Assembly (NCBI RefSeq): GCF_023278565.1
Contig: NC_064679.1
Span: 1,984,001 to 2,048,000, forward strand
Origin: Colletotrichum lupini
Taxonomy: Eukaryota > Ascomycota > Sordariomycetes > Glomerellales > Glomerellaceae
Reading direction: 5' to 3'
Length of the DNA stretch: 64,000 nucleotides
Numbering within the stretch: position 1 is the stretch's first letter; the number at the start of each line of letters is the position of its first letter. Made by a program: the position numbers and the translations under genes. Below the pieces are notes generated by a model. That model ran no database searches, had not been told where the DNA came from, and saw only the letters and a program-made list of their open reading frames with translations. Shown here piece after piece: positions 14,063 to 46,067 of this stretch.

Positions 14063-14974
14063 CTAGCTGTGACTCCCCGAACTAGTGAATGTCTGGGAGG
14101 TTGATCCAGGCTTTGAGACCATGTATGACGGCCAGAAATCTTCGGTGGTCGCACCTTCCATACACACAAACTCGTCCCCGTAACCCCCATCCCAGTTCTG
14201 AAAGTCCACGCCTGGCCAATCGAAAGCGTCCCCAGCTGGTAGATCCGAGACGATGGGGGGTTGATGACCTCCAGTGGAGATGGGAGGCCCATTCTGCATC
14301 AACACGCCAGGTGCTGGACAAGTCTGGACATGTTAGTACTTACAGAATAACCTTTGGCAAAACTCACCATCTGAGTAACATTTGGCGTGGGGGCTCGCTC
14401 AACTTTAGGTGCAATCAGTCGTTCGCGGCTAATCTTCATTGTTGTGTAAGTATGAGGATCACAGCCTGAACCCGGTGCAAGAACCTACTGAAGAGGACTT
14501 CAAACCAGTTGGTGTACTATTGTATATCACAGGTGCGCCCTGGGGTGAAGATTGTAGTGTGACAATTACACCCGGCGACTCGCCATCATCGAAAACGTCG
14601 TCGACTTGACTGTGAATCACCGAAACAGCAGCCTTGCCCTTCATGGGTGTTGACATCTGCATCATATTGTTGTTTCTCGCCATCTTGTAACGCTCATAGT
14701 CAGCATACTTGGAGCCTTGGAGAAGAACTTTCGTCCCTCTATGTAGGATCTCCTGAATGGTCTGTAATGACAGACCAGAACCTTGTGGTATAAAAGCGAA
14801 GATGTCTTCGGCAGTCTTCAGGACGAAAGTCTCACATCCCTCAGCGGCTATGTCGTGGTGTTCTATCACAGGATCAAAAGCTATAATAACCGTCGTCAGC
14901 AGCTGTCTACATAATAATGCTAGTGCCACACACTTTGCGAAGGTATCTCTTCATCATCGGGAAAAAGCAGATTC
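14063..14974 (-). pseudogene. 3' part of split gene (probable zinc-finger protein), disrupted by hAT-like insertion
   Basis: Reading 5' to 3' on the minus strand, the exons are 14974-14934, 14880-14531, 14484-14368 and 14323-14063. Introns of 53, 46 and 44 bp have donors GTGTGT, GTGATA (weak) and GTGAGT; the clearest branch is ACTAAC before the last exon. All junctions keep frame, and the final exon is 87 codons including stop. The protein begins NLLFPDDEEIPSQ, runs through FDPVIEHHD and ends with an acidic/aromatic tail (DWPGVDFQNWDGGYGDE). The LFPDD-x-x-IPS motif is common in fungal C2H2 proteins just after the zinc-finger block. Upstream the frame runs straight into the end of the AT-rich element. 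The missing 5' part is at 44733-46067. Confidence 0.75.
14967..14974. repeat. Left target-site duplication GCAGATTC
   Basis: Eight bases identical to 44733-44740, immediately outside the inverted ends of the 29.8-kb block. Eight base pairs is the hAT-type duplication length. Confidence 0.9.
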
Positions 14975-14995
14975 CAGCGCACATACCCATTCAAA
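14975..14995. repeat. Left terminal inverted repeat of hAT-like block
   Basis: Pairs with 44712-44732; 18 of 21 positions match, with mismatches at positions 7, 8 and 17. Confidence 0.85.
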
Positions 14996-15165
14996 TCAAT
15001 CAAACAAATAAGTCAAACAAACAGTCAAATATAGGAACTTCAGCAAGTCAAACAATCAAATATTCCAGCCCGTATATTTAATATATTTGATCAAATCTAG
15101 AATCCAAGGGTGGGCCCGAATATACCAATAATATACTAAGAAAATACGGAAAAAAAGGGGCCGCC

Positions 15166-15262
15166 CGGACCCGGATTCGAACACCGGACCTCCGGAATTA
15201 AAGTAGATCCGCCCCAAAAAATCCGGCGCCTACGGCGCCGTATCCACTAGACCATTTATACG
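15166..15262 (-). pseudogene. Degenerate tRNA-like / Pol III element
   Basis: On the minus strand an A-box-like TGGTCTAGTGGATA is followed, after a GGCGCC-GTA-GGCGCC hairpin and a CCGGA/TCCGG stem with a long intron-like loop, by a B-box-like TGTTCGAATCC. The 3' flank GGGCGGCC would fit a 5' acceptor GGCCGCC, but the present 5' side (GTATAAA) does not pair. The T stem is imperfect. This is a relic tRNA gene or a tRNA-derived short element. It lies in the non-RIP border just before RIP-mutated DNA begins. Confidence 0.4.
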
Positions 15263-15669
15263 TCTAATATTCCTTTATTTCGGCTCTATTCTACCTTACC
15301 GGGAGGAGGGGGCAGGTCGCTTCCCCTATAATACTCGAAGTACTATCGACGGTAGTAGCTATATATACAATAGTTACTACTTAAATAATCGTTATAAGAT
15401 AGTTATTAAGAGTTTTAGGAGTTATAAATAAGTTATATTCTTTTTATATAAATCTAAGTAACGGTAATATTAAACGAAAATATATAATTAATAATAAGTA
15501 TTATATTAATTCGAATAGTATAAACGCCTTCCCTATATTATTATAACCTATATTATTTTCTTTAGAATTATTATAGTATTAGTATTATTAGTAAGTAGCT
15601 ATTATAATATTACTATTACCCTTTAGGGCCTTCGGTAGTCTCTTCGCGCTATTAGTATTATTAGTACTA

Positions 15670-15725
15670 TTAGTGCTATTATTATTATTATTATTATTAC
15701 TATTATTACTACTACTATTACTCTA
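15670..15725 (+). repeat. (ATT)n/(ACT)n microsatellite
   Basis: A run of ATT triplets interspersed with ACT at the end. Confidence 0.8.
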
Positions 15726-16267
15726 GCTACGCGCTTATTAAGTTAATATACTCCTCGTTACCGGGCTCGGGCTAAAAAAAAGAGAGATTATTAGTTAGTT
15801 ATTTACTATTAGTAAGAAAGAACTAGAGGAAGACGTATATTTATTATTATTATAATAATAGTATTATCTTTTTTAGACTTTACTTAACTAGCGGGCTATA
15901 GCTCTAGGCTCGGGCTCGGACTAAACTCTAGCGTAGGGCCTCGGCTAGCTTCCTTAGCCTCTAATTATTATATAATAATTATTTAAGCCTTATTAGCCCG
16001 CGGGCTAGATCTTTTAACTTTAATACTTTAAAGGGCGTAGCGCTCGATTATAATATTAGTAATAATAACAAATAGGGGGCTTGGGCTATTATTATTATTA
16101 AAAGCTATTATAAATAAGTAAGTAGTTTAGATAGGAAGAAATTAGTATAATTAATATATTATAATTTAGTTTAATAAAAGGGTATTATACTTAGCGAGGA
16201 AAGAAAATAATATAATATTTAATATAATATATATTTTTAATATAATATATAATATATAATATATAGG

Positions 16268-19200
16268 GAATTAATAGGGATATATAACGAATTAATACGG
16301 ACGCATAGCTCTTAGGGACGCATATTTTTCTTTATTTTTAATTAGTTTAAAAATTTATTATTAATATACTTAAATTCTATTACTTTTTTTTAAAATACTT
16401 ATCCTTTTTTATAATCTCTTTCATACGATTATATTTTAAGGGAGCTTTATTACGAAGCTATTATTAATTTAATATATTTTACGTCCTCTTTTCTTTAAAA
16501 CTATATTAGTTTATATATTATAAAATAGCTCTTTTAATAACTTACGTACTAAGCTTACGTTGCTAAGCTTAGTTTAATAACTTAAATGATTAAAACTATT
16601 TTATAAAACGCTAACGCTTTAATAATAATAATATATTATTATTTCTTATTTTAAATAAAAGTTATATTAGTATTAGTTAGTTTTATAAAGTTAACGATCC
16701 TTATATATATAGTAATTTAATAAATAATATCTTACCCGAGTTATTATAAAAAACGCGATTATTATTTTACTATCCGTACCGATATATTAAAATAAAACTA
16801 ACTTTTTATTTTAATTAAAAATTCTTTAATAAAACTAATACTCTTTAGCTTTTTATTATTTTTTAATTTTTATTAGCGCGCAGTCCTCCCCCTTTTAATA
16901 AAGAGTTTAAATAGCTTATATTTTATTTTATATATTATTTTTTAAAAAGAATATAAACTACTTAATATATTACCCTCCCCTAAATATTACTAAAGCTTAG
17001 TCCCTCTCCTTTTTTTAATAAATCTTAATAACCTACTTAGCTTATTATAAAATAGTTTAATAATATTCTTTAGCTTATTATACGAGTTATTAAGACTAAT
17101 AAAAAGTTAATAACTAGCCTTATTTAATAATATAAGTAAAGCTATTTATAATAAGAAACGTGGGGGTTTTAAACGAACTTATTATTTTATTTATTTTTAT
17201 AATAAAACCCTTTTTTAAGTTTATTATTTTTTTAAACTATAGCTTTTTATTATACTTAAAATAATAAATCCTCCTCCCCTCTCTTAAATAAAACCTTAAA
17301 CTTACTAATTCTTAGCGGCCTAAAGCTAATAATAAATACTTTTTTTAATTAAGTTAATACTTTTACTAAGGTTAATAGCTTTAGTATTATAAAATATTAT
17401 AAGTATAAGTAAAATAAGAAGAATACTTAGTATATATTTTAATATAATTAATATAAATATCCTAAGCCTAGCTATAGTATAAGTCTAAGGTAACGGAGAT
17501 TTTAAAAATATAGCTATAAATAGAAATTAATTACTAAAGCTAAGGTTAAGGGATAGTAGTTATTATAATAATATAAAGATCCTTAATATAATTAATATAA
17601 CTATAAGCTTAGTTTTAAAATATTTATATACCTTTTTAATTATAAACTTACTTAGTTAGTTAAGGATATTATTAAAATTATAAGCTAATAAGTTAGGATT
17701 TAGGTATATAACGTACGCACTATTATTTAAGAATAGTTCTTAGAGTTTTTATTTACTTAGCGAAATATTTATAACGCTAGGGCTTATATAAACTAAGAAA
17801 AACTAGTTAAATACTTACTAATTATAGCATTAATTAAGCTATTTAATAAGCGAAATATCCTATATATAGTAAAATAGGTAAATAACGAGCTAAACTACTT
17901 TATTAGCCTTATTTAGACCTTTTTTTATTATTTTTAAATATAGAAGCGATTCCCTAAGGTAATTAGTTTTAATAATATTTATAATACTAATCGCTTTAAG
18001 CTTCCTCTTTTTTAAACTATTAAATAGACCTACTTTAGATTTATTTATAATACCGCGTTTAGCCTTATTAATAACAAGAAATTAGAGGGTTTTTAGTTTT
18101 TTTTAATAAGTATTTATTAACTTATAAACTAATACTTAGTCCGTTACTTTATTATTATTATTATAAATTATAATAAATAAATAAAGGCTATACTAAACGA
18201 GTAATTCTCGGACGTTTAGTAATAACTTTATATTCTATTATATTAACTTTAATATTATACTTAGGGCTAAATAAAAATAAGTTAAGGACCGTAGCTATAA
18301 TAATAATAATAATAGGTTTAATAACGAGGGATATTAGTTATTAATATAAGTAATAGCTACGCTAAGTAATAAGGATAAGGCTTATATTAATATACTTATT
18401 AATAAGCCCCCCCCTTATATATATTATAGGGTTTTTATAATATAGAAGTTTATTATTTTTATTAAAACTAAGTATATTTTTAAAAAAGCCTAGACTAAGC
18501 TTTATAAAGAGTTTAATAATTAATACTTAATTTTCTAATATCTCTATATAATATACCTATTTTCAAGAATATAATAAGCCCGTTATTTTATTTAAAAATA
18601 CTAGAACTTTAGTACTCGTATTATTTTTAGTACTAAGTTAAGTAATAATAATATTAAAGGTTATTTTTTTAAATAGTTTTAGTTACTTATATTAACTTAT
18701 TAATATTATATAAAATATAATTAGTAATTAGGAGCTATATTTTTATTAAGTTTATATAAAAAACGAAGTATTTATAAACTAGGAGTATATAAGTACTCGC
18801 TTTAAATACTTAAGCAAACTTTAAATAATACTTTTTTTAAAATATCTTACTTTAATTAGGACGTAAGGCCGGTTTATAAAAAAAGTAATACTATTTAATA
18901 AGAGGCTATTCTTAGACCCCCTCAGATCTTATAATCTAAATTATATTATTTTAATTAAACTAAGTATTTTATATTATTATAAAATCTATTTTAAAATATT
19001 AAATTTAGCTATTTTTAATAAGTAAGAAGTATATCCTTAATAGCGTTTTTAAGAGACGTTTTTTTTAAATTTATATTACCGGATTTTTAATTTTAAGATT
19101 ATTATATCCTTTTATAATAAGCTAAAAAATATAGTATAGCTTATTTTATTATAACTAGCCTTATTTAAAAAAGGCCGGTTAGCTAATTAAGCCCGTACTA

Positions 19201-19849
19201 TTTATAATAACTAAAGCGCTAATAATAAAAAGCGAGGCCGCTTATTTAAGAATAAAAATAAGTTAATACTAGCTAGGCTTATAAAAAAGATAAATTAGCT
19301 AAATTAAAGCTAAATATTAAGCTTATTTTAATAATAAATAAGGAGCTAGTTTAGCGTTTTCAATAAGGGGAGAATAATAAGGAATTATATAAATAAACGG
19401 CTAATATAGCTTAGTATTTAGAAAAAACGGAGCTAATAAAAAGTAGTTTATAATAATAATAAATTATTATAACTACGTTAAAAAAGGTAGTTAAATAGAC
19501 GTTATTATAATTGACTTTTTATATATTTTAAGTATATAGTACGAAAAAGCTTTACTTATTTAAAATTTATAAAAGCTTAGATTACTAGCTTATTTAAAAT
19601 TTATAAATCTTAAATAGGTAATATAGCGGTTCTAAATAAGTATAGGGGTTATAATAATATTCTTATTTTTAAAAATCTTAAACTAGAGCTTAAGTTAGAG
19701 AGGATAATAAAAATAGTTATATTAATATAGTTACTTTTACTACTTTTATAAAGAAGTACTATTTTTTTAAACTAATTAGAAATAGAGAATATTATGCGTC
19801 CCTAAGAGCTATGCGTCCGTATTAATTTATTATGCGTCCCTATTAATTC
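16268..19849 (+). mobile_element. TIR transposon A, copy 1 (RIP-mutated, 3,582 bp)
   Basis: Bounded by inverted repeats of about 60 bp. The left end carries GAATTAATAGGG, then ATTAATACGGACGCATAGCTC, then TTAGGGACGCAT; the right end carries the complement (ATGCGTCCCTAAGAGCTATG...). The repeats hold internal GACGCAT direct words. TA precedes the ends at several of the four termini, compatible with a TA duplication, but the AT-rich flanks make this undecidable. Nearly the same length and, in reverse, the same internal order as the copy at 53023-56601. Coding capacity is destroyed by RIP, so the superfamily is not assigned. Confidence 0.8.
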
Positions 19850-20555
19850 TTAATATAATATATAATATATATATACTTATAAATATTATAAAATTAGTAA
19901 GATAGATATAGTAGAGAGACTTATTATAGAACTTAGTACTTACCTACCCGTTTAAGGTACCAAAGTTAAAAAACCGCTCTAGGTAAAAGGGCTATATTAA
20001 ATATTATATAAAGTATTATATAAAGCTTATTTACGGCCGTATAAGCTATAAAAAGAAAATAAATAGCGAGGATTACTAAGCGGCTAGATAAAAAGAGCTA
20101 TTATATAATTAGTATATTAGTAAATTTATATATTACTAAAGTAAATATTATATAGTTAGTTTTTATAATTAATATGTGTGTATATATAATTAAGGTTAAA
20201 TTGGTTACCTATACTTAATACGTTTCTAAGAAACGGGCTATAAGTAGTGCCGACCCGCCTCTAAGTAAGGGACTATATATTAAATAGTATACTACTTATC
20301 CTCTTTTATAATAGTCTACTTTATAACCCTTAAGCCTAAGCCTAAGTTTATATTTTAATATATTATCTCTCCCTCCCTCCCTATAACCTCTATATCTTTT
20401 TATTATATATCTATTATACTAATAATAAGCTATACTAATTTATACTAAAGCGAGAGGGTTAAACTCGAATAATATTATTAATATCGTATTAATATTTCTA
20501 GCACGTATAGCTTTAACGAGGTAATGCGGGATATTCTTATAAAGGTTATAAAAAG

Positions 20556-20742
20556 TGAATATTCATATAGAAGCAAGAATATATGAATATAGGGGATATA
20601 AGCGTATATAAAAGAGGTTTTTGTAGTAAAGAGAGTAATATAGTTGAATTACTATATGAGAAGTTGCTTGCTTAACGAAAGGTCTAGGTAGGCAAATACA
20701 CGCCTACATATAGGCATAAAAACCTCTTACTAGAATATTCCA
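20556..20742 (+). mobile_element. Possible solo LTR (187 bp), not RIP-mutated
   Basis: Starts TGAATATTC and ends GAATATTCCA, an imperfect terminal inverted repeat of TG...CA type, and contains a TATA-like GTATATAAAAGAGG near 20610. No 5-bp flanking duplication is evident. It keeps CA and TG dinucleotides unlike the DNA around it. Confidence 0.35.
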
Positions 20743-20744
20743 TT

Positions 20745-20773
20745 GCTTATTAATTATGATATAATTAATAAGC
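20745..20773. repeat. Perfect 13-bp inverted repeat, 3-nt loop
   Basis: GCTTATTAATTAT, then GAT, then its exact complement. It lies within the RIP-poor island and would form a stable hairpin. Confidence 0.85.
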
Positions 20774-20863
20774 GTATACGTAAGTGAATGCGTAATCGTA
20801 GTACGTAATTCCGCCTCGAGTAAATTCCAGATTATTCAGTTACCTTCCAGTACTTTCCATTGC

Positions 20864-20961
20864 TCACGTAAGCTTATATAAGCAGTATTGCTTACATAAT
20901 CAATACCTATAATAATCTACAGAAATCGTAGATTAATATGGTATATAGTTTGCTTACGTGA
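20864..20961. repeat. Nested hairpin, outer arms TCACGTAAGC
   Basis: The outer 10-bp arms (20864-20873 and 20952-20961) are perfect inverted repeats. Inside them a second stem pairs AATCTAC with GTAGATT across a 7-nt loop, near 20930-20955, with further partial pairing outward (ATACC with GGTAT). It could fold as a long cruciform or a structured RNA. Confidence 0.7.
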
Positions 20962-23900
20962 TATTGATAATAAGGCGAATAATAAGGTAAACAAAGTTAC
21001 CTTCGTAACAATATTAAAAAAGATAGAAATAGCTAAGTACTTAAATAGGTATATATAAGCAGATTAACCGTAATAAGCGCTACGCTATATAAAAAGGGAG
21101 CTAAGTAAAGTACTAGTTATAATAATAATATTAGACTTATTAACCGACTTATAAGGGGTCTTATTATAAATATTATAAGCGCTATTTATTTTAAAGTTAT
21201 AACGGGAACTACTAGTATTAGTAATATTAGTAAAAGGATTATATAGCTTAATTTGCGTAATATTATTAATAAAGTTAGATATAAAGAGACGGCTACTTTT
21301 AATAGCTATATTTAAAATAAAAGAACTAGGGGTAGGTTTAAATAAATAGAAGTTAGTAATAGGGGCCTAAGTAATATAATTGATAAAGGGTAGTAGGGGA
21401 GCCTTATTATCCTATATATAGTAATAAGTATAATACTTAATACTAAAAGTACGACCGTTAGTAATAAGGTCCTTTTCTTTTTAAATAAAGAGCTCCTTAT
21501 TAATATTTATAAAGTAATTTATAATAATAAAGCCCTTATAAATATTATAAATCTTAGTATAGAAGTTCTTATTTATAATACGTTTCTTACCCTTAGAAAG
21601 ATCTTTATTAAGCTCTTTTTTATAGTTAATATACTTAAATATTATAAGAGCTAAGGTAATAAAAACGATATAAATAAAGTAGTAAAATAAGGATTACTAA
21701 TTAGGGAAAGTAACCTCGTAGTTAATAAAGGACTTAATAAAGCGCTAAATAGTAATAAAAGTAGTCTTATTTAGCTAGCTAAGTAATAAGTTATATATAG
21801 TTTAGCGAGCGTTAGTATTATTATTTAGATTATCGAGCTTAGGGTATAACTTAAAGACCTTAGTATAATTACTAAAAAAGTAATTATACTAATTAAGAAA
21901 ATAAATAAAAAGGAACTTATATTAAAAGTCCCGGTACTAGGTAGTATATAGCTTATAAAGCTCGATAACCTCTTTAAATAATAAAATATAATCCTTAAAT
22001 ACTTTATAAATAGTATTTATAATAAACTTATTATTATAAAAAAGGAGCTAGTTTTAATAATAGTCTAAATTTAATTTATTATATAATATAATACGAGTCT
22101 CCTCGGGGATATTAATAAGAGCGTATACTATATTAATAATAACTATAGGGTTATTAACCTTTTTAATAATAGCCTTTTTATTACTTTTCTTAGTTTTTTT
22201 AAGGGGGGTATTATTATTAGAAAGGGTAAGGGTATTATTATTATTAATAATAAGGCGCTAGTCTAGAGCATTCTTAAGAGTAATATTATTAATATAATAG
22301 GCCTCGAGGAAGAAGCCGGGGTTATTAATAACTAAGGTAATAATATACTAATTATAATGAATAACCTTAATAATTAAGGTATTTTAATAAAATATATTAG
22401 TTAGATAATATTAAGATAAATAAAAAGAGTAATTATAATATTTACTTAACAAATAAAAGGGGTCTCTAGAGGAGGTAATAGAGTAGGGTTAATTTATATA
22501 ACCTCGGGCTTAGGCTTAGGCTCTAGCTCCTTATACTTAGGCTCTTTATACTTAAGCTCTTTATTATATAGCTACTACTACTACTATTTAATAAAAAGGG
22601 ACTCGTTATACTTAGCCTAAGACTAAGCTCTAGTAAAGTAATACGCATTCTTCTTACGCTTATTATTTTTATTACCTCTTTTAGCTTAATTATAGGGAGG
22701 TATAGTAATCGATTATAAAAATATAATAAGTAGTATATTATAAGTAAGTAAAATAAAAATGCATAATAAGTAAAGTAGGTTAGGTAATAAAAAAGTAGGC
22801 TATTTATATCGATTTAATAAACTAGTTTATAGTAAGTATAGAAAAAAGAAAAAAGGGAAGGTTTAGAAGCGCGGGTAGAGGGCTAAATAAGTTAATTTTT
22901 TATTCTTATTTAGCGAGTACGTATATACGCGAGATAGGTAGTTAAAAAAAATTAATAAAGGGCCTAGGTAGTAGTAAATAAGTAAATTAATAATAGAGAT
23001 GTAAATATACGCTTATAAGTAGTAGTAATAAAGGTATGCCGGCTTAGTAAGGGCCCGGTTAGCTCGGTAGGAGTTACGTAACCCCACTTTTACGACCTCT
23101 TTTTACTAATTAACTACCTAACCTCTTAACCTCTACCTTTCTAATACTTACTATAAATATCTTATAAATCTAACTACGTTAAGTCTATTATTAAAAAATA
23201 ATAATGTATAAGATGCCTCTACTTACTACGATAATAAGTAAACATAAGAGGCTTCTTACCGATGCGCTTGCGGACGATATTGCCCTAGGTTATTATTAAA
23301 GGGCCCCTTAGTTTAGCACTAGCGAAGTATCTTAATTAAATATTAATTAATCGGTTTCTTAATTATAAATTAACGATAGTAATATTAATATAGAAATAGA
23401 AGCTAATATTAGTTACTAGGTAGACGCTAAGATAAATAATAATATAGAGGATAATATAGAGGATAAGGGTAACGTATTTAATATAAATTTTATATATACT
23501 ATAAGTAAACTACGAGCCTTAATAAAGATAATTAGGATATAACTAATTATATTATACTTATTTAAGTAGCGCGATTAATCTTAATAATATTAACCTTAAT
23601 AAAGTTAATAAAGCTAGGGCTAACGGTAATTTACTAGCTAGATTTAATAAAGAAAAAGCTAATACTACTAAGGTATATAATAATTATATTTTTAAAAAAG
23701 ATAATATCGATAGCTTAGATACTTAGCCCTTTAATAAAACTAATAATGAGGATAATACCTTCCCTTTTATAAAGGACTATATTACTATCCGTACTAACCC
23801 TCTTCTAAGGGAGCGTATTATAGTAAGAGGGTATTAAGAGCCTAACAACGATATTTTAAAATTAATCCCTTATTATTAAAATAAGTTTATTTAGCTATTA

Positions 23901-26900
23901 GACTTCGAGCTTAAGCTTAGCTTTTTTTTTTATACTTTTAGTAATAATTATATAGAATATACCGCTCTTTACTAACTTCTCTCTATTTTTTTTTAATATT
24001 AAGAAAGCTACTAAGTAAGCTATTAAAAAGCTCCTTATATAGCTAGTATTTTTAAAAAACCGTATTTTTTAAAAATTCCCCTTAATTCTTATATAGAAAG
24101 TAGAAGTATTATTAATATTTAAAAAGCTTTTTATAGCGCGAGTATTCCGTAAGTTAAATAAATAGGAAATTATAAAAAGGGGTATTATATTAAACTTATT
24201 TATTATTAATCCTTAAGTAATATTTACTAACTTCTTATTATTTAACGTAGTTAATAATATATATCGAGGATTAGTATATTTTATTAATATACTTATTAAG
24301 CTTTTTAAGTTATATAGCTAGGTATTATTAGTGTGTATTATATTTAACGAGTTTATATATATTATTAATAACGAGAATAAGGAGACTAATATAGTCTTAT
24401 TATTAGACTTCGTTATATACTAGTACCTTAACCCCTTTTATATTTATTAAAAAGTTAACTAAATAGATAAAAAAAAACTATATTACGGTTACGTTTATAC
24501 CGTTAGCTATAATTATCAAGACGACTTTTATATTATTAAAAAGGGTAATATTATAATTTAAATCTAAAAGATCTTTTTTTATATTAATAATTAACACCCG
24601 GAGATAATCCCGAAGTATCCTTTTTATAATAATAAAGGTTATATTTAAAATAACGATAAAATAATTATTATAAACGAGGTTACTTTTATCCCCGAGGAGA
24701 GTATAGTTAATATAATTAATAATAATATAGTATATAACTACTTTTTTAATAAGACTATAGCCGATTTAAGCTTCGATATTAAATAGAAGTAGAAGTTTAA
24801 GAAGTTTATTAAGCGCCTAGTACTAAATAATTATAAACTTATTGTTTAGCGAGTATAGCGCTATATATTTAAAAATCTAATTCCCTTAGTATATACGTAC
24901 TTTATTTATATAAAGTTAGAGCTTAAGACGTATAATTAAGAAATACTTAAAGATTAGGATAAGTTTAATATAAAGATCTATAGTTATCTTATTATATACT
25001 TTATTAATAAGTTCGGTATATACCGCAATTCTTATTATACTCTTATAAGTATATATATAATAATTACTAAGCTCTAAGTAAAAGATCGACTCCGATAGGC
25101 TAATATCTTCCTTTTTATACTTAGTTTATATAGTTCGAATTTTAATAATATTATTAAAGTATTCTAGTCCCTAGCTAAGCTTAACCGTAATATTAAGTTA
25201 TATATTAATAATAAGTACTATATTATAATCGTACTAATTCTTTATTATATTAGGGATATACTATAGTAAAATAAAAATAATAAATTCTAAAGTACTCGAG
25301 CGAATAAGTTTTATCGTTTCTATTTCGTTAGCGATTTATAAAAAAATAGTAATAACCCGGAGTTAGTACTAAATTTCGATATAATTACTTATAGGCGCTA
25401 TTATTATTAATATATAATTATATATAAAGATATAAATAATTTCATAATAGTAGCTTTTTATGAGTAGTATAGGAAAGTATAGGGTATTATAAAGAAAATG
25501 CCTATATTAGCGTTTATTACCCCTATACTAGACTTAATTTCTTTATACCCTCTAGATCCCGCCTATTTTAAATATTAGGGCCTTACTAAGTTAATATATA
25601 GTATACTACTTAATAGTATCCTTACTACGTAAGGGTATAAGGAGTATACTTATATACTACGTATTTAGCCCTTTTTACTAAGTTAGGAGCGCCTATAATT
25701 ACCGCTTTATTATTTTTATAGTTACTCCTTAATAATAGATACTCGTTAGTTAGTTATTACCTCAGGTTTACTTCGAAGCTTCTTAATTCCTTATTATATT
25801 TACCCTAAATTTATAAATACTATATAAAACTAGTTTAGTAATATTATTAATAACGATATCGTCGATTTTATAATAAAAACTTATACGAGGTTAGTTAAGT
25901 CGAATAGTATTCTAGTTAGTACTAATATTAATAAAGCTAATCGTAAGAATATAATAAGTATTATCGTTAAGGCTCGTAAAATATATTAATAATTATATTA
26001 AATTACTAGCTAAGCTATTATTAATAACCCCTAAGCGTAGAGTATTATTAGTAATAGTCGCTAGGGCTCGATAATATTACTATAATAGCCCTTTTATTAA
26101 CTATAAGTTAGGTTAAGATCAGAATATATATAGTTATTTACTAAGCCCGTTTTATATAATATTTCTTAGTATATAAGAAGATAGTTAACCTAATTACTAC
26201 CTATTCTTATAATAAAAAATAAGCCTAAGGCTAAGCGAGGACCTATATTACTTAATAAGAGAGCTAAAGGGTATATATTAAATATAGTATAGCTAAATAT
26301 TTATATAAGTATTTATTATAAGGCTATTACTAAGGAGTTTAGAATACTTATAAATATAAATATATTATTAAGTAAGAATGAGTATAACTAAATAAGGGGT
26401 ATAGTAATATCCTATTATTTTAATATTTATTATTATATAATATATTTATTATTAATAGCCGTATAAGTAGTTTAAAATAATAATAACCTAAACGAACTAT
26501 ACTAATATTAAAAAGATCTTATTATTAAAAGTTAATATATAAATAACGTAGCGCTTCCTCTTTTAAAGTATTCTTTATTATAATAATAATAAGCTTACTT
26601 ACTAAATATACTAGCTTTATAATAAGGCTTTCATATTATTTAATAAGGTATTACCTCGTATTAATAAAAAGGATATATAATAAGAGGATACTAAGGAAAA
26701 AGAGCTAGCGAGTATTATTAGAGAAGACGGAGAGTACTATAATTTTATTATTATTAGTTAAGTCGATAGAGCATAGTACTTAATTAATAAAAGCAAGCTT
26801 TTACTTATTAAAAATACGAATATATTATAGATTTTTAAGCGAGCCCTGCGCTTAGTATATATATAGTACTATGCTTATAATAAGATTTAGAACTTCGGAT

Positions 26901-26948
26901 ATAAGGCTATTTAGTAGTCGAACCGTTTTAGTTTTATAAATAGGTAAG

Positions 26949-27015
26949 TACTATATTTACTTATTTACTATATTTACTTGTTTATTATATTTACTTATTT
27001 ACTATATTTACTTAG
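26949..27015 (+). repeat. 17-bp tandem repeat, four copies
   Basis: TACTATATTTACTTATT repeated head to tail with single-base variants, in RIP-mutated DNA. Confidence 0.85.
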
Positions 27016-33988: not shown

Positions 33989-33996
33989 ATAATTTA
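33989..33996. repeat. Left target-site duplication ATAATTTA
   Basis: Identical to 36937-36944 and directly outside the inverted repeats of element B. Confidence 0.85.
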
Positions 33997-34228
33997 GGGC
34001 GAGGATATTTTATTAGTAGCTCCTGCTATTCTATTACTAAGTATAGCTACGGCCGCTACACGACCGCCGGTCTCGGGCATATATATAAACTAGGCTCTAT
34101 ATAATTTGTATTCGAATAGATTAGACTAATCAGAGGCTATTAATTAACTTATAGTTAAATAAGTTATTTTAATAAAAAGTACGGTAATTAATAAATTAGC
34201 TTAATTTAACGTAATTAATAAAGGAGCC

Positions 34229-34325
34229 TAATTAACTACTTAATTAACTACTTAATTAACTACTTAATCAACTACTTAATTAACTACTTAATTAACTACT
34301 TAATTAACTACTTAATTAACTACTT
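34229..34325 (+). repeat. 12-bp minisatellite TTAATTAACTAC, about 8 copies
   Basis: Head-to-tail copies inside TIR element B; one copy keeps TCAACTAC, the CA-containing form. Confidence 0.9.
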
Positions 34326-36786
34326 AATTAATTATTAATTACTCTATATAGCCTATAGCCCGTAATTTAGTAACTTCTTTTACTTTAGCCTCGTACTCTA
34401 CTTTAGCTTCGTACTTACTAATAAGTCTATTTATCTCGCTTTTTATTATAAAATTCATATTATAAGCGTAATCTTCGTTAACTAGATCTTATAATATATC
34501 TAATTATATAAGATTATTAATTAATTAAGATTACGACTTTATAAGTATTAGCGGCCGAGGAGCCCTTATAAAATTAATTATATTATTATTAATTATATTA
34601 ATTACTTTATTAATAGTAGCTTATTAATACCTCCGCTATATCTCTATATTAGGCTCGTATATATTAGAATTATATATAACCTTGAGGCCTCGTTAAGTAA
34701 AAGTAGCCCTACTTAGTATTAAAAGTATCGTTAATAATAGCGGTGCTAGTATAAGTATTATTTCTATACGTTTAATAGCTTTTTTATATTTAAATATAAA
34801 GGGCTCTCGTTTAGAAGAGGTACTTCGATTAATAACTAGCTTTTTTAATTTACCTATTATAATTATTATAATACCTACTATAGAGCCCTATAAGCGACCC
34901 TTATCTCGGATTTATAGGGGATTAAGTAGGGGGATAGAAGTATTATTACTAATAATAGGCTCTAAGCGTTACTAAAACTAATATAAGTAGATCTTTTTAA
35001 TAATATTAAAATACCGTCCTTAATATATTATTAAAAGATATAATAATAAAGTAGCTTATAGGTAGTTCGAATTAAGTAATATACGTACTCTTTTAATAAC
35101 TTCTTTAATAAACCTATATTTAACTATCTACTTAGCATACTAAGTTCTTATAAAAGTCGTTTAAGAGTATCGTAATATATATACAGACGTACTTTGTTTT
35201 AAAATAATCCTATAATAATACTTAATACTTTAGCTTAATAACAGGTTTAATAAGTACTAATTATAACCGTTTAACCTACTTAAAAAATAACTAATTTATT
35301 AAATATAGCTTTAAAGTTACTTATATAATAATAGACTCGTATTTTAATACTCGTATATAAGGATTTAATAATTAATATAGTTAAATAACTAAAGTACTTA
35401 ATTTAGTTAACCTAAGTAAGTATAAGTTTTTTATATTACGGCTTAAGCTAAGTATAATAATATAATTAACTATTATTATAAAGTACTTAGTAATTTAAAA
35501 TTTAAATAATTAGTCGTAGTATATAGTTATTAATTAGCTACAGAGGAGATTATTCTAATTCGTAAGGAATTATTAGAAATAAGGGTTATATATAACTATA
35601 CTAGTCTCGTCCCTCGTAACTAGGCTAAAGTAATACCGGGTCCGGGCTAGTATATTAAGGTTAACATATTAATAATAAAGTACGTATAGTACTACTTTAA
35701 ATTAAGTATTATTATTAAGGGTATTAAATAGAATAATCTCGTAATCCGTATACGTAACTTATAAAAAAGGAATTTCGTAGGCCCGGAGTAATATTAATAG
35801 CTAGTTAATAGCCTAATTATAATTAGCTTCTTTCTTATTAAATAAAAAGTAGCTCACGACTTAAAAAGTATAACTATTATTAGTTATTTTGTAAATATTA
35901 AATAATAGTATATTAAATTAGTTAGTTTTATATATAGAATTTATTAATAAAATATCCGGATATTCTTAAAGTAGGGAAATTACGGTAATAAGTATAATAA
36001 ATAAGCTCGTAATATAGCCCGCGTTATTACGTTAGAAATAGTACTAGTACTTTATCGAATTACGTAATTAATTAAATAACTACTTAATAAGGGTCTTACT
36101 ACCTAATTCGTTACGGTAATAGGTAGCTAATATATTAAGTATATTACGGGTAATAATGCCGCTATAATTATTACTTTTTAACCATAAGCTCAAAAGGATT
36201 TAAATAGGTTAAATACCCTTATTTTATTAGTTAATAATTTAGTTCTTTTTATTACGTAGTAGCGCGCGGTAGTAATATACAAAAACGGTAATATTATTAA
36301 ATAAGTAGTTATAATAGTTATGGAAGTTATTAATAACGGGATAAAAGAGCTAATTACTATTTAAAAAGCTAATAGCGATTTATTAATAATAGTTTATAAA
36401 TAAAGTTAAGGATTTATAATACTTATTTAAATAAGTTAACTTTATAAAGTATTACCGTTTTTAATTATAACGCGGGCTATAAGTATAATAATAAGTAATA
36501 ATAATTAGTACTTTAGTAAAGGGTTTATATTAAATAATTCGGACCGTAAAACTAACTTCATAAGTAGCCTCGTTAAGTACTATTCTAGCCTTAAGTAAGC
36601 TAAAAAAATATTAATTATAAAATAAGTAGTTATACTCTACGTAACCGTAATTATTATAATCGATAGTATATTAATAAATAGAAAGATCGTTAATTTCGTA
36701 ATTATTCTCTTCTTATAGTATATTCACGTTAAGAATAGCTTTAATTAACGGCGGTAGTAATAGTAAGGTTAACGAAGTAGTAGTTA

Positions 36787-36845
36787 TAAGTAGGTAGGTA
36801 GGTAGGTAGGTAAGTAGGTAGGTAAGTAGGTAAGTAGGTAGGTAT
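36787..36845 (+). repeat. (GTAG/GTAA)n tetranucleotide microsatellite
   Basis: GTAGGTAGGTAG units with GTAA interruptions, just inside the right TIR of element B. The unit is not the fungal telomere TTAGGG. Confidence 0.85.
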
Positions 36846-36936
36846 AAGCAGCTAGGCTCCGTAGTTAGAGGTAGGGCCTGCCGTAGCTATACTTAGTAAT
36901 AGAATAGCGGGAGCTACTAATAGAATATCCTCGCCC

Positions 36937-36944
36937 ATAATTTA
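36937..36944. repeat. Right target-site duplication ATAATTTA
   Basis: Matches 33989-33996. Confidence 0.85.
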
Positions 36945-39900
36945 TATTTTTAAATACTTTATAAACTTATAACGCGCTTTAATAACTTTTTATTTACTTA
37001 TATACTAAACGTTTAAATAAACCTTAAAAAAGGGTTTATAAATTAGAATTATAAATATATAGGAGTTATTAAAACGTTATAATTTAGCTTTTTAATAAGC
37101 TTTATAAGTCGTAATTAGCTCCCGGGTTTAAATATATATTTCTAGTTAATAATATCGTTTTATAAGGCGGAAATAAGTAGCCTCTCGTCCTCGGTACCCG
37201 GATTTATTATATATTTCGTTAATTAGGTCTACTTAATAGCGCTTATTATTAATTATTTAAATAGGTTAGGGACGAGTCTTCGTCCCTTATTAAAATAAAA
37301 GTTTATTTTATATAATAAATTATATTACTATTTATTTAAAATATCTAAACTAATTAAAGGGTATACCCGCTAGCTTTTTTAAAATAAAAAGAAAATAAGT
37401 AATTTATTTTAAAAGATCTAACTATTATTCGTCTAGTACTAATATATTAGCTAGAATATTTATTTCTTATATTTAATTAATAGTAGCGTTATTATAGCTA
37501 TGCGCTACGAAAGAAAAGTTTTTTATAACGCGTATTTATAAAACTCGTATATTAATAAAGTCCTTAATATCTTTATTAAGCTTTATTTTAACTAGGTTAG
37601 ATTAGCTAGGGTTTTTCTTAAAAAGGCTATTTATTATAGTATTTTTTTATTAATATATTTAATTTTAAAGTTAAAAAGTTTAATCTAAAAGAGCTAGTGC
37701 GTTATTATTATTAATAATAAGTTATTTACTATATTATTAATTTAAATAATTAGGACCTAGGTATTGGTTTTTAATAAAAAGTTAATTTTAAATAAATAAT
37801 TATAAAGACGCTTTAGGCTTATTAAAACGCCTCGTATTTTAAGCTTATTAAAGTTATAATTAAGTTCTAACTCGCGCTATATCTTATTCTTATATTAAAT
37901 AATAATACGCTTATTATTAATAATTTAACTAAGTATATTACTTTATTTTTTAATATTAGCGTCCGTTATAAAAATAATTTACCTAGCCTCGGTATTATAA
38001 TTTAATAAAATTAAAATAGGGGTTATAATAATTACTTTTTTAAGTATTTTTATAACTTTAATTTATAACGCTCCCTATTTAAAACATTAGTTCTTATTAA
38101 GTAGGGAGTATAACGGGGCTGTTATAAAAAAAATACTTAATTTAATAGTAATAAAAAGTAATAATACTAAGAAACGATTTAATTTTTAAAATGTTTAAGT
38201 ATTTTATTTATTTAAGGATCTTAAGGACTTTAGTTTAATTAGGCCGTCTCCCTTCTATATTATAAAAGTAGCTTATAATAACTATAGATAGCTAGTACTA
38301 TTATAACTTCGCTCCGGAAATAATATAGCTAGTTAGCTCGATATTAACTAAGACCTAATCGATATTTTAGAAGTATTTATAAACGAATTACTACGGGATC
38401 GCGGGCCTTTAATCATAATATTATTAATAAAAGCGCTATAGTATTTCGGAATTAGGTTATAAAAAATATAAGTTATAATTTAATAAAACTAAGCTACCGA
38501 ATTCGTTACCCCTTATGGGAGGGTATAATATCTATATAGCCTAAGTAGAATTAAAAAAGTTATTAAATCGTAGCTCTTTTTATTTAAAGAGATCTAATCG
38601 TAACTAAAAAAGAATTTTAAAAAAGAGATAAGCTAATTTATAATAAACCTTTTTAAGAACTTATTAGTATTAAGTAGTTATTAAGTATTTCGAAAAGTAA
38701 CGGTATTAACTTTAGTTACTAAGTTAATTAATTAAAGATTACTATCTTTTATTATTATTAAGAACTAGGGGTTTTAATACGTAGTATAGTTGTTTTTAAT
38801 AATACCTCGGATAATACGTTTTTAAATTATTTTAAAAGCTTTTAATAATAGAACTTTTAAAATAAGGATATTTCTTACTTACTAAGTTCCATAAAATATA
38901 ATCTTAATTAATTATAATAGCGTAATTATAAAGTCGAAACGGCTATATTTAAAAAAGTCTTATACTAACGCTTTTTTTTAATTAAGGAGTATTTATTTAA
39001 AAGATTCTTATTTATAAAATAAAAAATAATCGTAATTTTTAAAAATAGCTTAGAGTTAATTATTTATTAATTTAAAACTTAGTTTTATATTTAAAAACTT
39101 AGGTATGATAATATTTTTATAAGGGCCCGATCGGTTTTATAGCTTATTCTTAACCTCTTTAAGCTTTTTGAGTTTTTAATAAGAATTATTATTAAGTATC
39201 GATTTATGAAAGGGCGCGTCGTTAACTAACTAGACTTTTTAATTTTTTCTTTTATATATTATATTAATTTTAATAGCATAGGGAATCTTATAAAAAGCTT
39301 TTTTAGCTACTTTATATAACTTTAATACCTCTTATCCTAGCCTTTTAATCTATTATTTAATATATAATTCTTTTTATTAAAAAATAAGTATTTTTATTAA
39401 GAAATATAAGTTATTTTAATTAGCTAATCCGTTTAACCTATTTTTAGCTTTAGTATAAGCGGTTATTATTACTTTTTTAATTTATATAATCTAAGGCTAC
39501 ATTATATAGAGCGTAATTATAATTATAATTTAGTTAGCTTAGTTTTAGTTGAAAATTATTATAATACGCTCGTTTTTTTTTAGTTCGGATTATAAATAAG
39601 GGTTATCGGAATTAGTAATATTCTTAGTTATATTATTAATATTTAGTTTTCCGATTTAAAGACTTTTTTTATATACTATTTAAAATAAAGTAAGATATCT
39701 TTTACGTCTTAAAAATCGTTCGTTTTAATTATCTTTATAAGGATCCTTAGCCTCGTATTTTAATATAAATTAGAGCAGTAACTATTAACTTATTATATTT
39801 AAAAAATAGCTTAGTATTTTATATAAACAGAAGACCTAATAATAATAAATCGGAGGTCTCTTATTCGTTTTTAATAAAAAAATAAGTAATTATTTTAAAC

Positions 39901-42900
39901 TTATTAATTTATTTATTTATAAAATAGAAGCTATGAAAAGTTATTTAGCTAGCCGGATTATATTTAAACGTTTATATTTAAAGTATTATTATTATATAAG
40001 AAATACTAGCTTTTTTAACGTATTATTTTAAAAAGATATTAACTTATACCCTAGTATTTAAAATCGTAACGATTATTAAACCCTTATTATTCTAATTTAT
40101 ATTAAATATTTAGATTTCTAACTGTATATAGGCGTTTAAAATTATGAAAATTAGAAACTTAGAAATCGGATTAGTACTTTTAACTTTACTAATCTTAGCT
40201 ATATAGCTCGACCTTAAGAAGAGGTTCTTATTATATTTTTTAAAAAAATCTTTAATATTTTTTTATTATTATTTATTTTTTATTAAGTTAGCTAAGGATC
40301 TCGGAGCTTTTAATAAAATTCTATTAGTATTAAAATACTTTTAATTACGTATTAAAATTATTATTATTATAATATATTTTAATATAATCTTTTATAAGAA
40401 GTTTATAAAAAGCGAGATCGGGGCCTCGAGCCTCTTTTTTATTAACTTTCTAACCTTAACTTTAAAATTAAAATTACGGGGCTAATTTATAGTTATTATT
40501 TTTTAAATTTTATAAAAAAGAGGCTCTTAGGTTCTTTAAATATTAATATTATAAGTACTAATCGGGACTTTAATAGGCTAGGGCTCAGAGGTAGATCTAG
40601 GAGTTACGTTTTTTATTATTTCGAAAACCTCGTTATTATTTTTAATCTCTATAATTTCTTTTTTTAATTAAAGAAAACACCCGTTTTTTCTTTAAATTAT
40701 AAATACTAACTTAGGCTATTAATACTATATATTTTTTTAAAATATAGTTTAGTTATTAAGATACGATTCTTAGGGGGTCTTTTTTTATAAATAGTATAAA
40801 TATCTACTTAGTTATAATAACCTAAATTAGGTCGTATTACGTAAATATATTTAACTATACTCATAGGATTAATAAAAGGGAGTATAAGTATAGTTTATTA
40901 AAGTAGTCTAATTTAGTAATTTAGAATCTATTTAACTCAAAGCTTAGTATTTTCTTTAGTTAATATATTCGCTACGTAAAAAAAAAGAATAACGCGATTA
41001 GTAATTACGTATTCTTTTTTGTTTTTAATTATAATAAAGGGGATATTATTTATAAGCTTATGCCCGTTACGTTTTCCGTAGTACTAAGCTCCTTAAGCTA
41101 AAATAATAAAATAAGTATCTTTATTAAGAGTATATTAATCGTAATCCTTAATAATTTAGTAGTATTAACTTTAGTAATACTAATAGTAATCCCTAAGTTT
41201 TATAATCGGGGGCTAATTAGGATATATAATACTTATATTAAATATATAAATAAAGCTTTAAAAATAAATACTATTTTAATAAATCTTTAGCTTATTTATC
41301 TTATTAGCTAGGTTAGAATTAGTAATATTATTAATAGCTACTTAGGTAACCTAGACCTCTATTATTAGTTAGTAATATTATTAATAATTTAAATATTAAT
41401 ATTAAGTATTATTACGTATTTAAGGAGTAGGGGGTCGTAATAAGAGTTCGGGTTAATTTTAATTATTTATAAAAAGTAGGCTATATTCCTTTTTATATAC
41501 GATCGCGTTAAGAAGTCTTATTTTAAACCTTATATACTTTATTAATCTAACGAAGCTATTTAAAATAACCCTAACTTTTTTTATTACTTCTTTTATAATA
41601 TTAATATAAAATTACTTATATACGGCCTTAATTAGGCTCTTATTAATTATAATATAGAGGTCTTATTACTTAATAAGGGTAATTATATTATTAATCTTAA
41701 TAAATAGTATTTAAGTAGAGTTTAAGTTAGAAAACGAAATAGGTAGCCCCTTAATAACTTTTTTAATTTACTCTTTTTTATTTAAAAAGTAGTTAATATC
41801 TTATTTTCTATACTTTTATAAAAAGAAATCCTTAGCTTAGGCCTAGGGTAGTTCTTTAATTACGTTTTTAACTAGAGTTTAATAATTTCTTTTTATAATA
41901 TATATAATAAACTTATTTTTAAATCGGTCCGGGACTTTATTAATCTCGTACTAATCCTCGAACTTTTTTAAAAAGTCTATAATATTATTGTTTTTAAAAA
42001 CTATAGTCTCTTCTTAACTAAAGAATAGTATTTTATAAAAACTTATATTTTTTATTAAATTAAGCTAAAGAATTATAAAAACCTTAGTTTAAAGTATAGT
42101 AATTTAGATCTAAGTAATAATAGTACTTAAAAAGGTATTAATTAAAGGATCTATTCTAACCCAAGTTACGATTAGTTTTTTTTAATTAGATTAATAAGTA
42201 AATTTATTAAAAAGGGTAGCCTTTTTATTATTAAATAACTCCGTAGCTTATAAGTCTTAATAAACTATAAAAGCTAGTTTAGTAAATAGTTTATTTAAAA
42301 TAAAAGGGTTAGCTTCGTATAATTAAACGTCCTAAGGGGCGCTAATAATAATAAAAATAACGTATTAATTATTTATATTTACGGTCCGAGGTTATTAAAA
42401 GTATAGTTTATTAATTCTATTTATAATTTTAATAATCTTATATTAGTTTATTTATTTTAAATAAAGTTTAAAAAAAGAAGAAAAGAGCCGTTTTAATAAT
42501 TAAAACGTAGCCGTTATCTTAATTAACGTAATTTAGGCCGTTCTTTTTAATCCCTATTATATATATAACTAAAGTTTTAATTAGATATTATATTAGGCCT
42601 ATAGTAATACTAATGAAAATTATTAATAAGTCTAGTTAAAAACTAGTTTTATAAGCGCCCTTAGCCCGACGTATTTATATTTTTAAATAGGTCTATTATT
42701 AAGTCTCCGGACTATATTAATTAATAAAGAAAAGTCTAGTTAAATAACTAATTATACCCATTAAAGTATTTTATTAGTTCTAATCTTAACTTATTATTTA
42801 TTTTATTATATTATTATAGCGTTTTATACTTAGGCTTAATCCGGTTCTAAATATCCGCGTTTTTTTTTACTTATTTATCTTATTTACTTCTTAAGGTTTA

Positions 42901-43125
42901 TTATATCCCCCGTTTTATTAAATAAAAAGCCCTTTTTTATACGTCTTCGTTTTTACGTTTTAATTATTTAATTACCTTTTTTTAAATTAAAATCCTACTA
43001 CTTATATTCGTTTCAATTATTATGCCGTTTTCCCTAATTAATTATTTAAAATATTTTTAATTAAGTTAGGCTTTCTCTTGTTTATTTTCTTATTTAATAA
43101 GAAAAGGATTTTTAAAAAAGGAGAT

Positions 43126-43528
43126 TATTAAAAATGTATAAAGTATAAGGGACTCTTATAGTATAGTACTTTAAAAAAACTACAAATATTTATAAAAATA
43201 ATATAAAATACCTCTTTCGATCGGGTTAATACGGTCTTAATTAACAAAGCTATAACTAAGAAAAAGAGGATAATATTAACTAGATTAACAAAGTAAACTT
43301 TTTAATTATTTTATATTATTATATATAAAAATAAATCATTAAAAAGGCTCTAGTTCGATCTTAAAAAGTATATATATAATTAAAATAAAAATCCGTATTA
43401 CTAAGCCCCTATTTCTAATTAGGGCCCTTTGTTTTATATCTTTTTTTAATTAGCTCTTTTATAAATCCCTAGACTTAATTAGCTTTAAAAAGGACCGCTA
43501 GGACTAATTACCCTACCCCATTTTAATA
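43126..43528 (+). repeat. Right LTR of LTR element A
   Basis: Direct repeat of 27525-27926. Shared words include AAGGGACTC, GTATAGTACTTTAAAA, AATATAAAATACCTCTTT and CTTTTATAAATCCCTAGACT. Confidence 0.75.
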
Positions 43529-44732
43529 TCTTTACTCGTAGTAACTACGTTAAGTATATAGATAGTAATAAGTAGTTTATAATAGGCCGTATTAATTATA
43601 ATTTTGTTTATAAAATATATAACTTACGCCGCATCTTTATTATTATTATACTAATAGAGATTTTAGATAATAAGGACTATATACTCGACTTATATAAGGT
43701 GCGCTACCTTAAGGATTAACTTACTATTATTAATATTAATATTATCTAGCCTAAGAAGCTATACTTCGTTAAGATCCGTAACTATAGTATTTAAGTTAAG
43801 TAATAGGTTAAGTAGCTATAATATGCTTAATACTATATAAGTATATCCCTATTACTATTACTCTGACGGGTATATACTAATATATTTATATCGTAAGCTA
43901 CTTTATATATCCGAGTATTAGGTAGGTAAAACTATTTATTTTTAATACTTATTTATAATTGCGAGAGGCTAAATAGCTTACCTACTTAATATTAAAGAAC
44001 TTTACGGGTAGTAGTAGTAATAGTAGTAATAATAATAGCGGCGCCTTAATACTACGATTTCTAAGTAATAAGGTAAGTTAATTATTACGAGCGGCTTTAT
44101 TCTTTTTTTCGTATTAATAAATCCGTATATAGGCTATATATTTATATTATCTTACCCGCTAGACTATTTCTCTAAATTTAATAGGGATAGTAGTATTAGA
44201 GTTAGGGGTCTAACTTTATAGTAGTAGTAGCGTTTATTAGACTTAGAGGTTTAATTTTAGGGATTTTACTTAGAGGTATAAGTAGCCGCGACATCCGCAC
44301 ATCTATAGCAATATTATAATATATATAAATAGTAGTATATTAATATATTTATTTAAATATATTAGTATCCGTATACCCCGGGCCCCGGGAGTACCCCTTA
44401 GTACGGTCCCCGATGCCCTACTTATAACTTTTAAAACTCTTAGCTACTCTTAGGCGATTATTATTAAAAATATAACTATTATATATATTACTATTATTAT
44501 AAATTAAGTTATAGTATTTTATTTAATAGTAGTAGTATAGAGTCGCGCGACTATATTAATATCCTTAATTAATATATTCCCTTATACGCCCCCGGTAAGG
44601 TATAATGAGTAATTAGTTAAATTAATTAAATATTTGTTAAATATGTTAAATAATTAAATATAGCGCGAGAAATGAGCCAAACAATTAAATACGAACCTTA
44701 TATTTGATTTGTTTGTATGGGTATAAGCGCTG

Positions 44733-44740
44733 GCAGATTC
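44733..44740. repeat. Right target-site duplication GCAGATTC
   Basis: Matches 14967-14974 exactly. Confidence 0.9.
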
Positions 44741-44742
44741 TA
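44740..44742 (-). other. In-frame TAG next to insertion point
   Basis: The codon sits between WGQL and NLLFPDD in the joined frame. TGG or CAG would give TAG by a single RIP-type transition. It may be a RIP-leakage mutation within the first bases outside the element. Confidence 0.5.
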
Positions 44743-46067
44743 TAATTGCCCCCAAGTTTGAATTTTGTAGCCGGCAGCACGACTTTTGAGAGACTCGTCT
44801 TTGAGACTGTCCACGCCATCTTCGGGATCTCTTGGTTCGGAATTAGGATTTAACCGTCGGTTGCGAAGACAAACTTCAGGCGGGTGGCCTCCAGCCGTTC
44901 GCGGTTGCCCACAGTAAGTACACCCCCCGTGCTCAGCGCTAATATGTCTCCTATGTGATTGTGCCGAGTCAGGCCTTGTCCAAAGATAGCAACGTGGAAG
45001 GAAACATCCAATGTTCGGAATCAGCTGTGGGAGTATTGCAAGAACATTGGAACTTACTTTAATTCTGCCATTTGCTTGTAGGGCTTATTGGCACAAGCAT
45101 CGAAATCCCGGGCGTTGAATCTCCAGGGGTTGCGTTTTCTAAAGGGACTGCTGAAACCCCCTGGACGCCCGATCTTCCGTCTCTTGCTGCGTCCTCTTCT
45201 TGTTGGGCCCTGGTCTTGACCAGCATTCTCGTCCATCTCGTCGTGCTCATCGTCTCCGCCTCGCTCTTCAGCCGGTCGCTTCTTTGTTCCTGACTCTGAT
45301 TGTTGAGCTCGATTTGATGTCTCATCAAATGCCGAGTTGCCGTCGCTAGCATCTCCCTCTTCGACGTCATAGCAGGAAAAGCCGTCATCATCCCAGTCAA
45401 TTGTCGAGAACGTTTCCTCTTGCTGCAGAATTTCGACGCACTGATCTTTAAACTTGGAGAACGCCTCGATGACACGAAGAGGGTGACTGAGTCGGTTAAG
45501 ACACACCCCAAGAGAACGGGATAAAGCAATGTTGGCAGCACTCTCTAAATCAAAATCAGAGCGACAGATATCAGAACCAGAGTCGGACTCTCGAGCACTA
45601 ATCGGTGACTCAGCCGCGCTGTAGATACCAGTCGGAGTACTAGCTCCGCCAGAGGGGAGCTGGGAATCTGGTAGGCGGGAATCTCGAGAAAGAATCGGCA
45701 AATCTGCGAACTTGCCTGAGGGCAACGCGTTCACATGCTCCCCGATACCAACAAGACCAAGCTCCATGGCTTGGCCCGGCGCAGAGGTCAGCCTTGTTGG
45801 GCTTTGAGGTTGAGATGTGGTTGGAGTCGTCGCCGATGGAGAATGCATGTGGAAGTCGAAGTGAGGAGCCGAAAAGGTAGCAGAATGGGCCTTGGAATAT
45901 GAAGTCGAAATAGTCCCAACTGAATGGTTGTCGTCGGCGTGAGTCTTTTGTCGGCGAAGTGCTAGCTTTGAAGGAACTTCGACTGATTTACCGCGATATA
46001 TAGTATGTTCTTGTGGGCTCTTGGTTGAGGTGACACCCTCAATTGCTGCCTCGTTTTCGTCGTTCAT

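What the first reader, a model, noticed from the sequence alone, without database searches (positions are those of the whole stretch)
14063..46067. One minus-strand gene split by a 29.8-kb insertion; frame continues exactly across an 8-bp target duplication
GCAGATTC is present at both 14967-14974 and 44733-44740. Inverted ends (CAGCGCNNATACCCATNCAA) lie just inside. Deleting one duplication plus the block joins codons for WGQL to NLLFPDDEEIPS without changing frame, and LFPDDxxIPS is what fungal C2H2 proteins carry after their finger block. Two gene fragments 30 kb apart are therefore one disrupted gene. The insertion is also far longer than a normal hAT element.
Basis: partly seen in the sequence, partly recalled or inferred. 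Interest (0 to 1): 0.88.

Follow-up and report, generated by a model that had tools for sequence, protein, structure and literature searches.

The report
Fungal gene split by nested transposons
A fungal zinc-finger-type gene was cut in two by a small 450-base jumping element that later filled up with other jumping elements, so the apparent 30-kb giant insertion is an ordinary nest of decayed transposons, with one curious detail: the small element carries a tRNA-like stretch.

Summary
The gene break is real. The 8-bp repeat GCAGATTC (14967-14974, 44733-44740) and the inverted ends sit where stated. The two halves are collinear with one Colletotrichum protein: all 9 of the 13 homologues found that reach the site run straight across it. 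Two parts of the reading fail. First, an in-frame TAG stop falls exactly at the junction, so the frame is kept but does not read through. Second, this is not one long hAT element. The inserted element is a roughly 449-bp hAT MITE: 14975-15293 plus 44601-44732, 95% and 92% identical to an uninterrupted copy in the same genome. The other 29.3 kb (15294-44600) lies inside the MITE, flanked by TA. It is a TIR element with a core of about 9.2 kb and two further copies, interrupted by a Mutator-like element, a 514-bp solo-LTR-like piece and a 16-kb LTR element with more insertions. Copies differ mainly by transitions, as expected from repeat-induced point mutation. Loose ends: the 9.2-kb core matched no known transposase, and the hAT family carries tRNA-like modules near one end.

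The parts
45057..46067 (-). 5' part of the disrupted gene, exon 1 (inner end approximate)
   Evidence: ORF; right-flank piece 94% identical to P0001
44741..45056 (-). 5' part of the disrupted gene: intron and the exon reaching the target site
   Evidence: frame shown; intron inferred from P0001
44733..44740 (.). target site duplication, right copy
14967..14974 (.). target site duplication, left copy
14063..14966 (-). 3' part of the disrupted gene
   Evidence: 97% identity of a 132-residue piece to P0001 residues 432-563; last residues match P0001
14975..15293 (+). left part of the hAT MITE, with tRNA-like module at about 15158-15275
   Evidence: 95% to G000:C6:4261416-4261734; alignment; module search
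44601..44732 (+). right part of the hAT MITE
   Evidence: 92% to G000:C6:4261733-4261864
15292..15293 (.). TA flanking the nested block, left (second copy 44601-44602)
   Evidence: the two MITE parts overlap by these two bases on the uninterrupted copy
15294..16265 (+). TA-flanked TIR element, core piece 1 (left end CCTTACCGGG)
   Evidence: 85% to the C2 copy and, for its two matched stretches, 85-87% to the C5 copy
16262..19855 (+). Mutator-like element nested in the TA element; MULE domain about 17959-18229
   Evidence: PF10551 E 6.5e-9; inverted ends; 88% to 53017-56607
19853..20496 (+). TA-flanked element, core piece 2
20497..21010 (.). 514-bp insert with ATATT on both sides, solo-LTR-like by inference
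   Evidence: 97% copy inside the C2 element; borders
21010..27527 (+). TA-flanked element, core piece 3
   Evidence: no Pfam transposase
27527..43526 (-). LTR retrotransposon with 400-bp LTRs (27527-27925, 43126-43526); RNase H then integrase order, Ty3/Gypsy-like
33988..36946 (-). second Mutator-like element nested in the LTR element
   Evidence: 67-bp inverted ends 94%; MULE E 6.1e-5, below the curated cut-off
32908..33979 (.). repeat matching the 1.1-kb direct repeats in L084, probably a solo LTR
43526..44600 (+). TA-flanked element, core piece 4 (right end)

Best explanation
A Colletotrichum gene was interrupted by an ordinary 449-bp hAT MITE, presumably moved by the transposase of the 3.2-kb members of its family, which left an 8-bp duplication. 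A larger TIR element that duplicates TA then landed inside the MITE, and that element received a Mutator-like element, a solo-LTR-like piece and a Ty3/Gypsy-like LTR retrotransposon, the last with a further Mutator-like element and a probable solo LTR. Repeat-induced point mutation (RIP) decayed the block to 19-29% GC in 1-kb bins. Shown here: the gene continuity, the MITE and its uninterrupted copies, the nesting borders, the other copies of the inner element, and the transition bias. Inferred: the order of the younger insertions, movement of the MITE in trans, and RIP as the agent. The gene is broken twice in this strain: by the insertion, and by an in-frame stop at the junction.
For: Both flanks of the nested block match one uninterrupted 449-bp MITE with a 2-base TA overlap. 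The inner ends recur at C2 and C5 as 17.0- and 10.1-kb elements, both with TA outside. Blocks absent from those copies mark the nested inserts. Transposon domains: MULE in the left insert, RNase H and integrase in the LTR element (sub-threshold), hAT dimerisation domain in one 3.2-kb family member (just over the cut-off). Transitions outnumber transversions 715:35 between the window and C5 copies, and 524:40 and 381:36 for two stretches of the C2 copy. Gene continuity.
Against: The in-frame stop at the junction means the gene may already have been broken, or the flank may have mutated later. The 2-bp TA repeat alone is weak and rests on three copies plus one relative. No reads were available to check the assembly. 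RNase H and integrase scores are below Pfam cut-offs and no reverse transcriptase was found. The genome-wide hAT dimerisation search found only 3 places, so most 3.2-kb copies are too decayed to confirm.
Confidence: 0.94

Rival explanations
1. A single giant hAT or cargo-carrying element (including a Starship) of 29.8 kb moved as one unit into the gene.
For: Matching 8-bp duplication and inverted ends at the outer borders.
Against: Uninterrupted 449-bp copies of the same element exist and the large block has its own TA-flanked ends inside it. None of the 8 DUF3435 (captain) matches in the genome lies on contig C6. The interior holds unrelated nested transposons.
Confidence: 0.03
2. An assembly mis-join placed an AT-rich repeat block inside an intact gene.
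For: Repeat-rich region; no reads were available here.
Against: The borders are base-exact transposon structures at two levels (8-bp and TA) with independent copies elsewhere. The genome is in 12 contigs.
Confidence: 0.03
3. The gene was already a pseudogene when the MITE landed, so the insertion disrupted nothing functional. (Compatible with the nesting account; an alternative only about timing.)
For: An in-frame stop lies at the junction and both copies of the duplication agree.
Against: Outside the junction the pieces stay 94-97% identical to the uninterrupted C. melonis protein with open exons. Two of the three bases of that stop lie outside the duplication, so later mutation next to a repeat is equally possible.
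Confidence: 0.3

Closest known systems
hAT superfamily MITEs
   Same: 8-bp target duplication in 17 of 20 fetched copies, short inverted ends starting CAG, ends shared with a 3.2-kb member that has a hAT dimerisation domain
   Different: The window copy is split by nested insertions; the MITE core carries a tRNA-like module
Nested transposon clusters in RIP-affected ascomycete genomes (recalled as a common kind; PMC8445621 came up for both terms, search listing only)
   Same: AT-rich block, transition-dominated differences, element-in-element borders
   Different: Nothing essential
TIR DNA transposons with TA duplication (Tc1/mariner and ISL2EU are candidates, recalled)
   Same: TA flanks and short inverted ends
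   Different: About 9.2 kb core and no recognised transposase domain in the parts of three copies scanned

Membership tests
hAT | 8-bp target site duplication | tested here: met
   Window copy; 17 of 20 fetched copies identical, 2 with one mismatch, 1 joining ends of two copies
hAT | hAT transposase in an autonomous relative | tested here: met
   PF05699 21.7 bits, cut-off 21.4, in L023, which shares the ends; marginal, one copy scanned, decayed
hAT MITE | short, non-coding, many copies | tested here: met
   398-450 bp in 13 of 20 fetched copies; 40 scored genome matches to the left end, of 93 candidates; absence of coding sequence not tested separately
Starship | DUF3435 tyrosine recombinase captain | tested here: not met
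   None of the 8 genome hits lies on contig C6; decay could hide one
Tc1/mariner | TA target duplication | tested here: met
   Window, C5 and C2 copies, C7 relative
Tc1/mariner | DDE transposase of that superfamily | tested here: inconclusive
   Apart from the nested MULE, no Pfam hit better than E 0.065 in the stretches scanned of three heavily decayed copies
Ty3/Gypsy | LTRs and RT-RNase H-integrase order | tested here: inconclusive
   400-bp LTRs 88% identical; RNase H E 3e-4 upstream of integrase H2C2 E 0.032, both below cut-off; no RT found
Mutator (MULE) | MULE transposase domain and long inverted ends | tested here: met
   PF10551 36.6 bits, cut-off 27.6, at about 17959-18229; 130-nt inverted arms

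The most novel reading that the evidence does not exclude
The hAT family that broke the gene carries a tRNA-like unit near one end in both its 3.2-kb and its MITE forms. The two units differ in sequence, although the forms share only about the last 100-130 bp at each end. If the unit was kept or regained because it works, for example as a Pol III promoter or a TFIIIC-bound barrier that keeps the element open in silenced DNA, this would be a DNA transposon that uses a tRNA module. Separately, the 9.2-kb TA element may belong to an undescribed superfamily.
Probability: 0.25. Interest if true: 0.6.

Novelty: new member of a known kind. Interest (0 to 1): 0.3.

Why it matters
It shows how two gene fragments 30 kb apart can be one broken gene, and that an apparently giant hAT can be a MITE that served as a landing pad. 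The split gene is a clean marker for presence/absence tests between strains. The tRNA-like module in a hAT family is the one part that may interest specialists.

Tried and rejected
Giant hAT or Starship: rejected. Identity of the 9.2-kb core: Pfam scans of translated frames gave nothing better than E 0.065 apart from the nested MULE. Coverage was partial: for the window copy 21010-27527 and 43526-44600 in six frames but 15294-21010 in the three plus frames only; for C5 the first 9 kb; for C2 the 8.5 kb of L083 only. A protein search of 21010-23409 scored 7995 candidates, none at E up to 0.1. Two PDB sequence searches of 24010-26997, one frame per strand, were empty. Stop density and G/C periodicity suggest coding in 21010-22400 and 24010-25200 but do not settle the strand. 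ARAGORN found no tRNA in the window, and Rfam gave no tRNA match at E up to 1 in the 5 MITE copies tried, so the MITE module is tRNA-like by box motifs only. The inner-end pattern had 10 genome matches (control 1); 5 are at ends of the window, C2 and C5 copies, and the 5 others, GC-rich loci L085-L089, showed no similarity to the inner element and were dropped. Papers: PMC11645255 was read in passages and in sections 7 and 8; all other papers were seen as search listings only. Searches for a hAT with a tRNA-like module listed none whose title or abstract start shows it; this is a narrow search.

Full report
What was checked. The ends belong to a family with 103 exact end matches in the 63.4-Mb genome and none for the reversed control pattern. 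I fetched 20 of the 28 close opposite-strand pairs that I count in that cut listing: 13 are 398-450 bp and 7 are 3.2-4.1 kb. Seventeen have identical 8-bp flanks (13 of 13 short, 4 of 7 long), 2 long ones differ by one base, and L020 does not match; it joins the end of a 3.2-kb copy to that of a MITE next to it. One 3.2-kb member, L023, carries a hAT dimerisation domain just over the Pfam cut-off; a genome-wide search with that domain found only 3 places. A window-only control was unhelpful: 273 pairs of places have an 8-bp repeat with at least 14 of 20 matching inverted bases. Twelve score 17 or more, the finding and 11 others, and 8 of those 11 pair the two oppositely oriented Mutator-like copies.

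The gene. The right-flank half, searched alone, finds 13 proteins; the 10 that carry names are all Colletotrichum. Nine of the 13 reach the target site (P0001, P0002, P0003, P0005, P0006, P0007, P0009, P0011, P0013) and all nine continue across it. The other four end before it: P0004 (the window's own exon 1), P0008 and P0012 stop at the end of exon 1, and P0010 stops further upstream. The left-flank piece, compared alone, is 97% identical over 132 residues to the same C. melonis protein, just after the site. So the two fragments are one gene. Whether the stop came before or after the insertion is open.

The insertion. The left 319 bp and right 132 bp of the block match one uninterrupted 449-bp MITE at G000:C6:4261416-4261864 with 95% and 92% identity and an overlap of two bases, TA. 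Four other fetched MITEs of 440-450 bp also span that point. Everything between (15294-44600) is therefore nested in the MITE. Its ends, CCTTACCGGG with TA outside, recur at C2:6538463-6555495 (17.0 kb) and, with the left end changed by two transitions, at C5:104552-114610 (10.1 kb); a relative at C7 also has TA at both ends. Comparing these copies gives a core of about 9.2 kb in four window pieces and three interruptions: 16262-19855, a Mutator-like element; 20497-21010, a 514-bp solo-LTR-like piece; and 27527-43526, an LTR element with 400-bp repeats and, on the minus strand, RNase H before integrase. The last holds a second Mutator-like element and a probable solo LTR.

Decay. The core stretches compared (21010-27527 and its counterparts) have 22-24% GC with TpA/ApT of 1.4-1.6 and a (CpA+TpG)/(ApC+GpT) ratio of 0.06-0.09. 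Window and C5 copies differ by 715 transitions and 35 transversions over 21010-26997, and the two window Mutator-like copies by 419 and 17. This is the pattern expected from RIP (established knowledge). The short MITEs mostly escape it: the same ratio is 1.09-1.52 in 12 of 13 and 0.68 in one, against 0.10-0.28 in the 7 long copies. That fits a length threshold for RIP (recalled).

Organism. Gene homology places the window in Colletotrichum, closest to C. melonis of the acutatum complex among the hits. C. lupini assemblies reach 63.4 Mb with ten core chromosomes and one accessory chromosome (PMC11645255, passages and sections 7 and 8), so C. lupini is likely; the genome here has 12 contigs. This is an inference.

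The tRNA-like module. In 7 of 7 fetched long copies a GGTTCGA-type T-arm motif lies roughly 230-240 bp from one end. Of the 6 copies scanned, two reach Rfam's tRNA cut-off (38.3 and 31.4 bits against 29), two score 27.3 and 24.0, and two gave no tRNA hit (L009 only a 17-base tmRNA match, L019 nothing); the opposite strand also gives sub-threshold hits to another family there. The seventh, L020, gave no tRNA hit. The MITEs carry a different tRNA-like stretch near the same end, with GGTGTTCGAATCCGGG-type and TGGTGCAGTGG-type boxes and a run of T after it (the box reading is recalled), but no Rfam tRNA hit in the five MITE copies tried. Forty genome places were scored for each module, of 42 and 57 candidates. 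Whether it does anything is unknown.

Verdict. A real gene disruption, an over-read element. The mechanism is ordinary nested transposition with RIP; the tRNA-like module and the unclassified 9.2-kb core are the parts worth a second look.

Noticed in passing
window 15158-15275; L028:3218-3295; L012:521-598; L017:3219-3296: tRNA-like module near one end of the hAT family, different in MITE and 3.2-kb forms; the long-copy module reaches Rfam's tRNA cut-off in 2 of 6 copies scanned, the MITE module in 0 of 5.
   Followed up: partly
window 47646-57441: Second AT-rich block with 186-bp direct repeats at its ends (88%) and a Mutator-like copy at 53012-56612, 88% identical to the one at 16262-19855 and in the opposite orientation.
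   Followed up: partly
window 21010-27527: Core of a TA-flanked element with three-base periodicity in two stretches but no known domain.
   Followed up: partly
L084:2721-9060: Relative of the TA-flanked element with about 98-bp inverted ends of the same (left) type at both ends, interrupted by a direct repeat pair of 1.1 kb.
   Followed up: partly
window 2077-2132 (-): Rfam tRNA match, 43.2 bits, outside the finding; ARAGORN did not report it.
   Followed up: no
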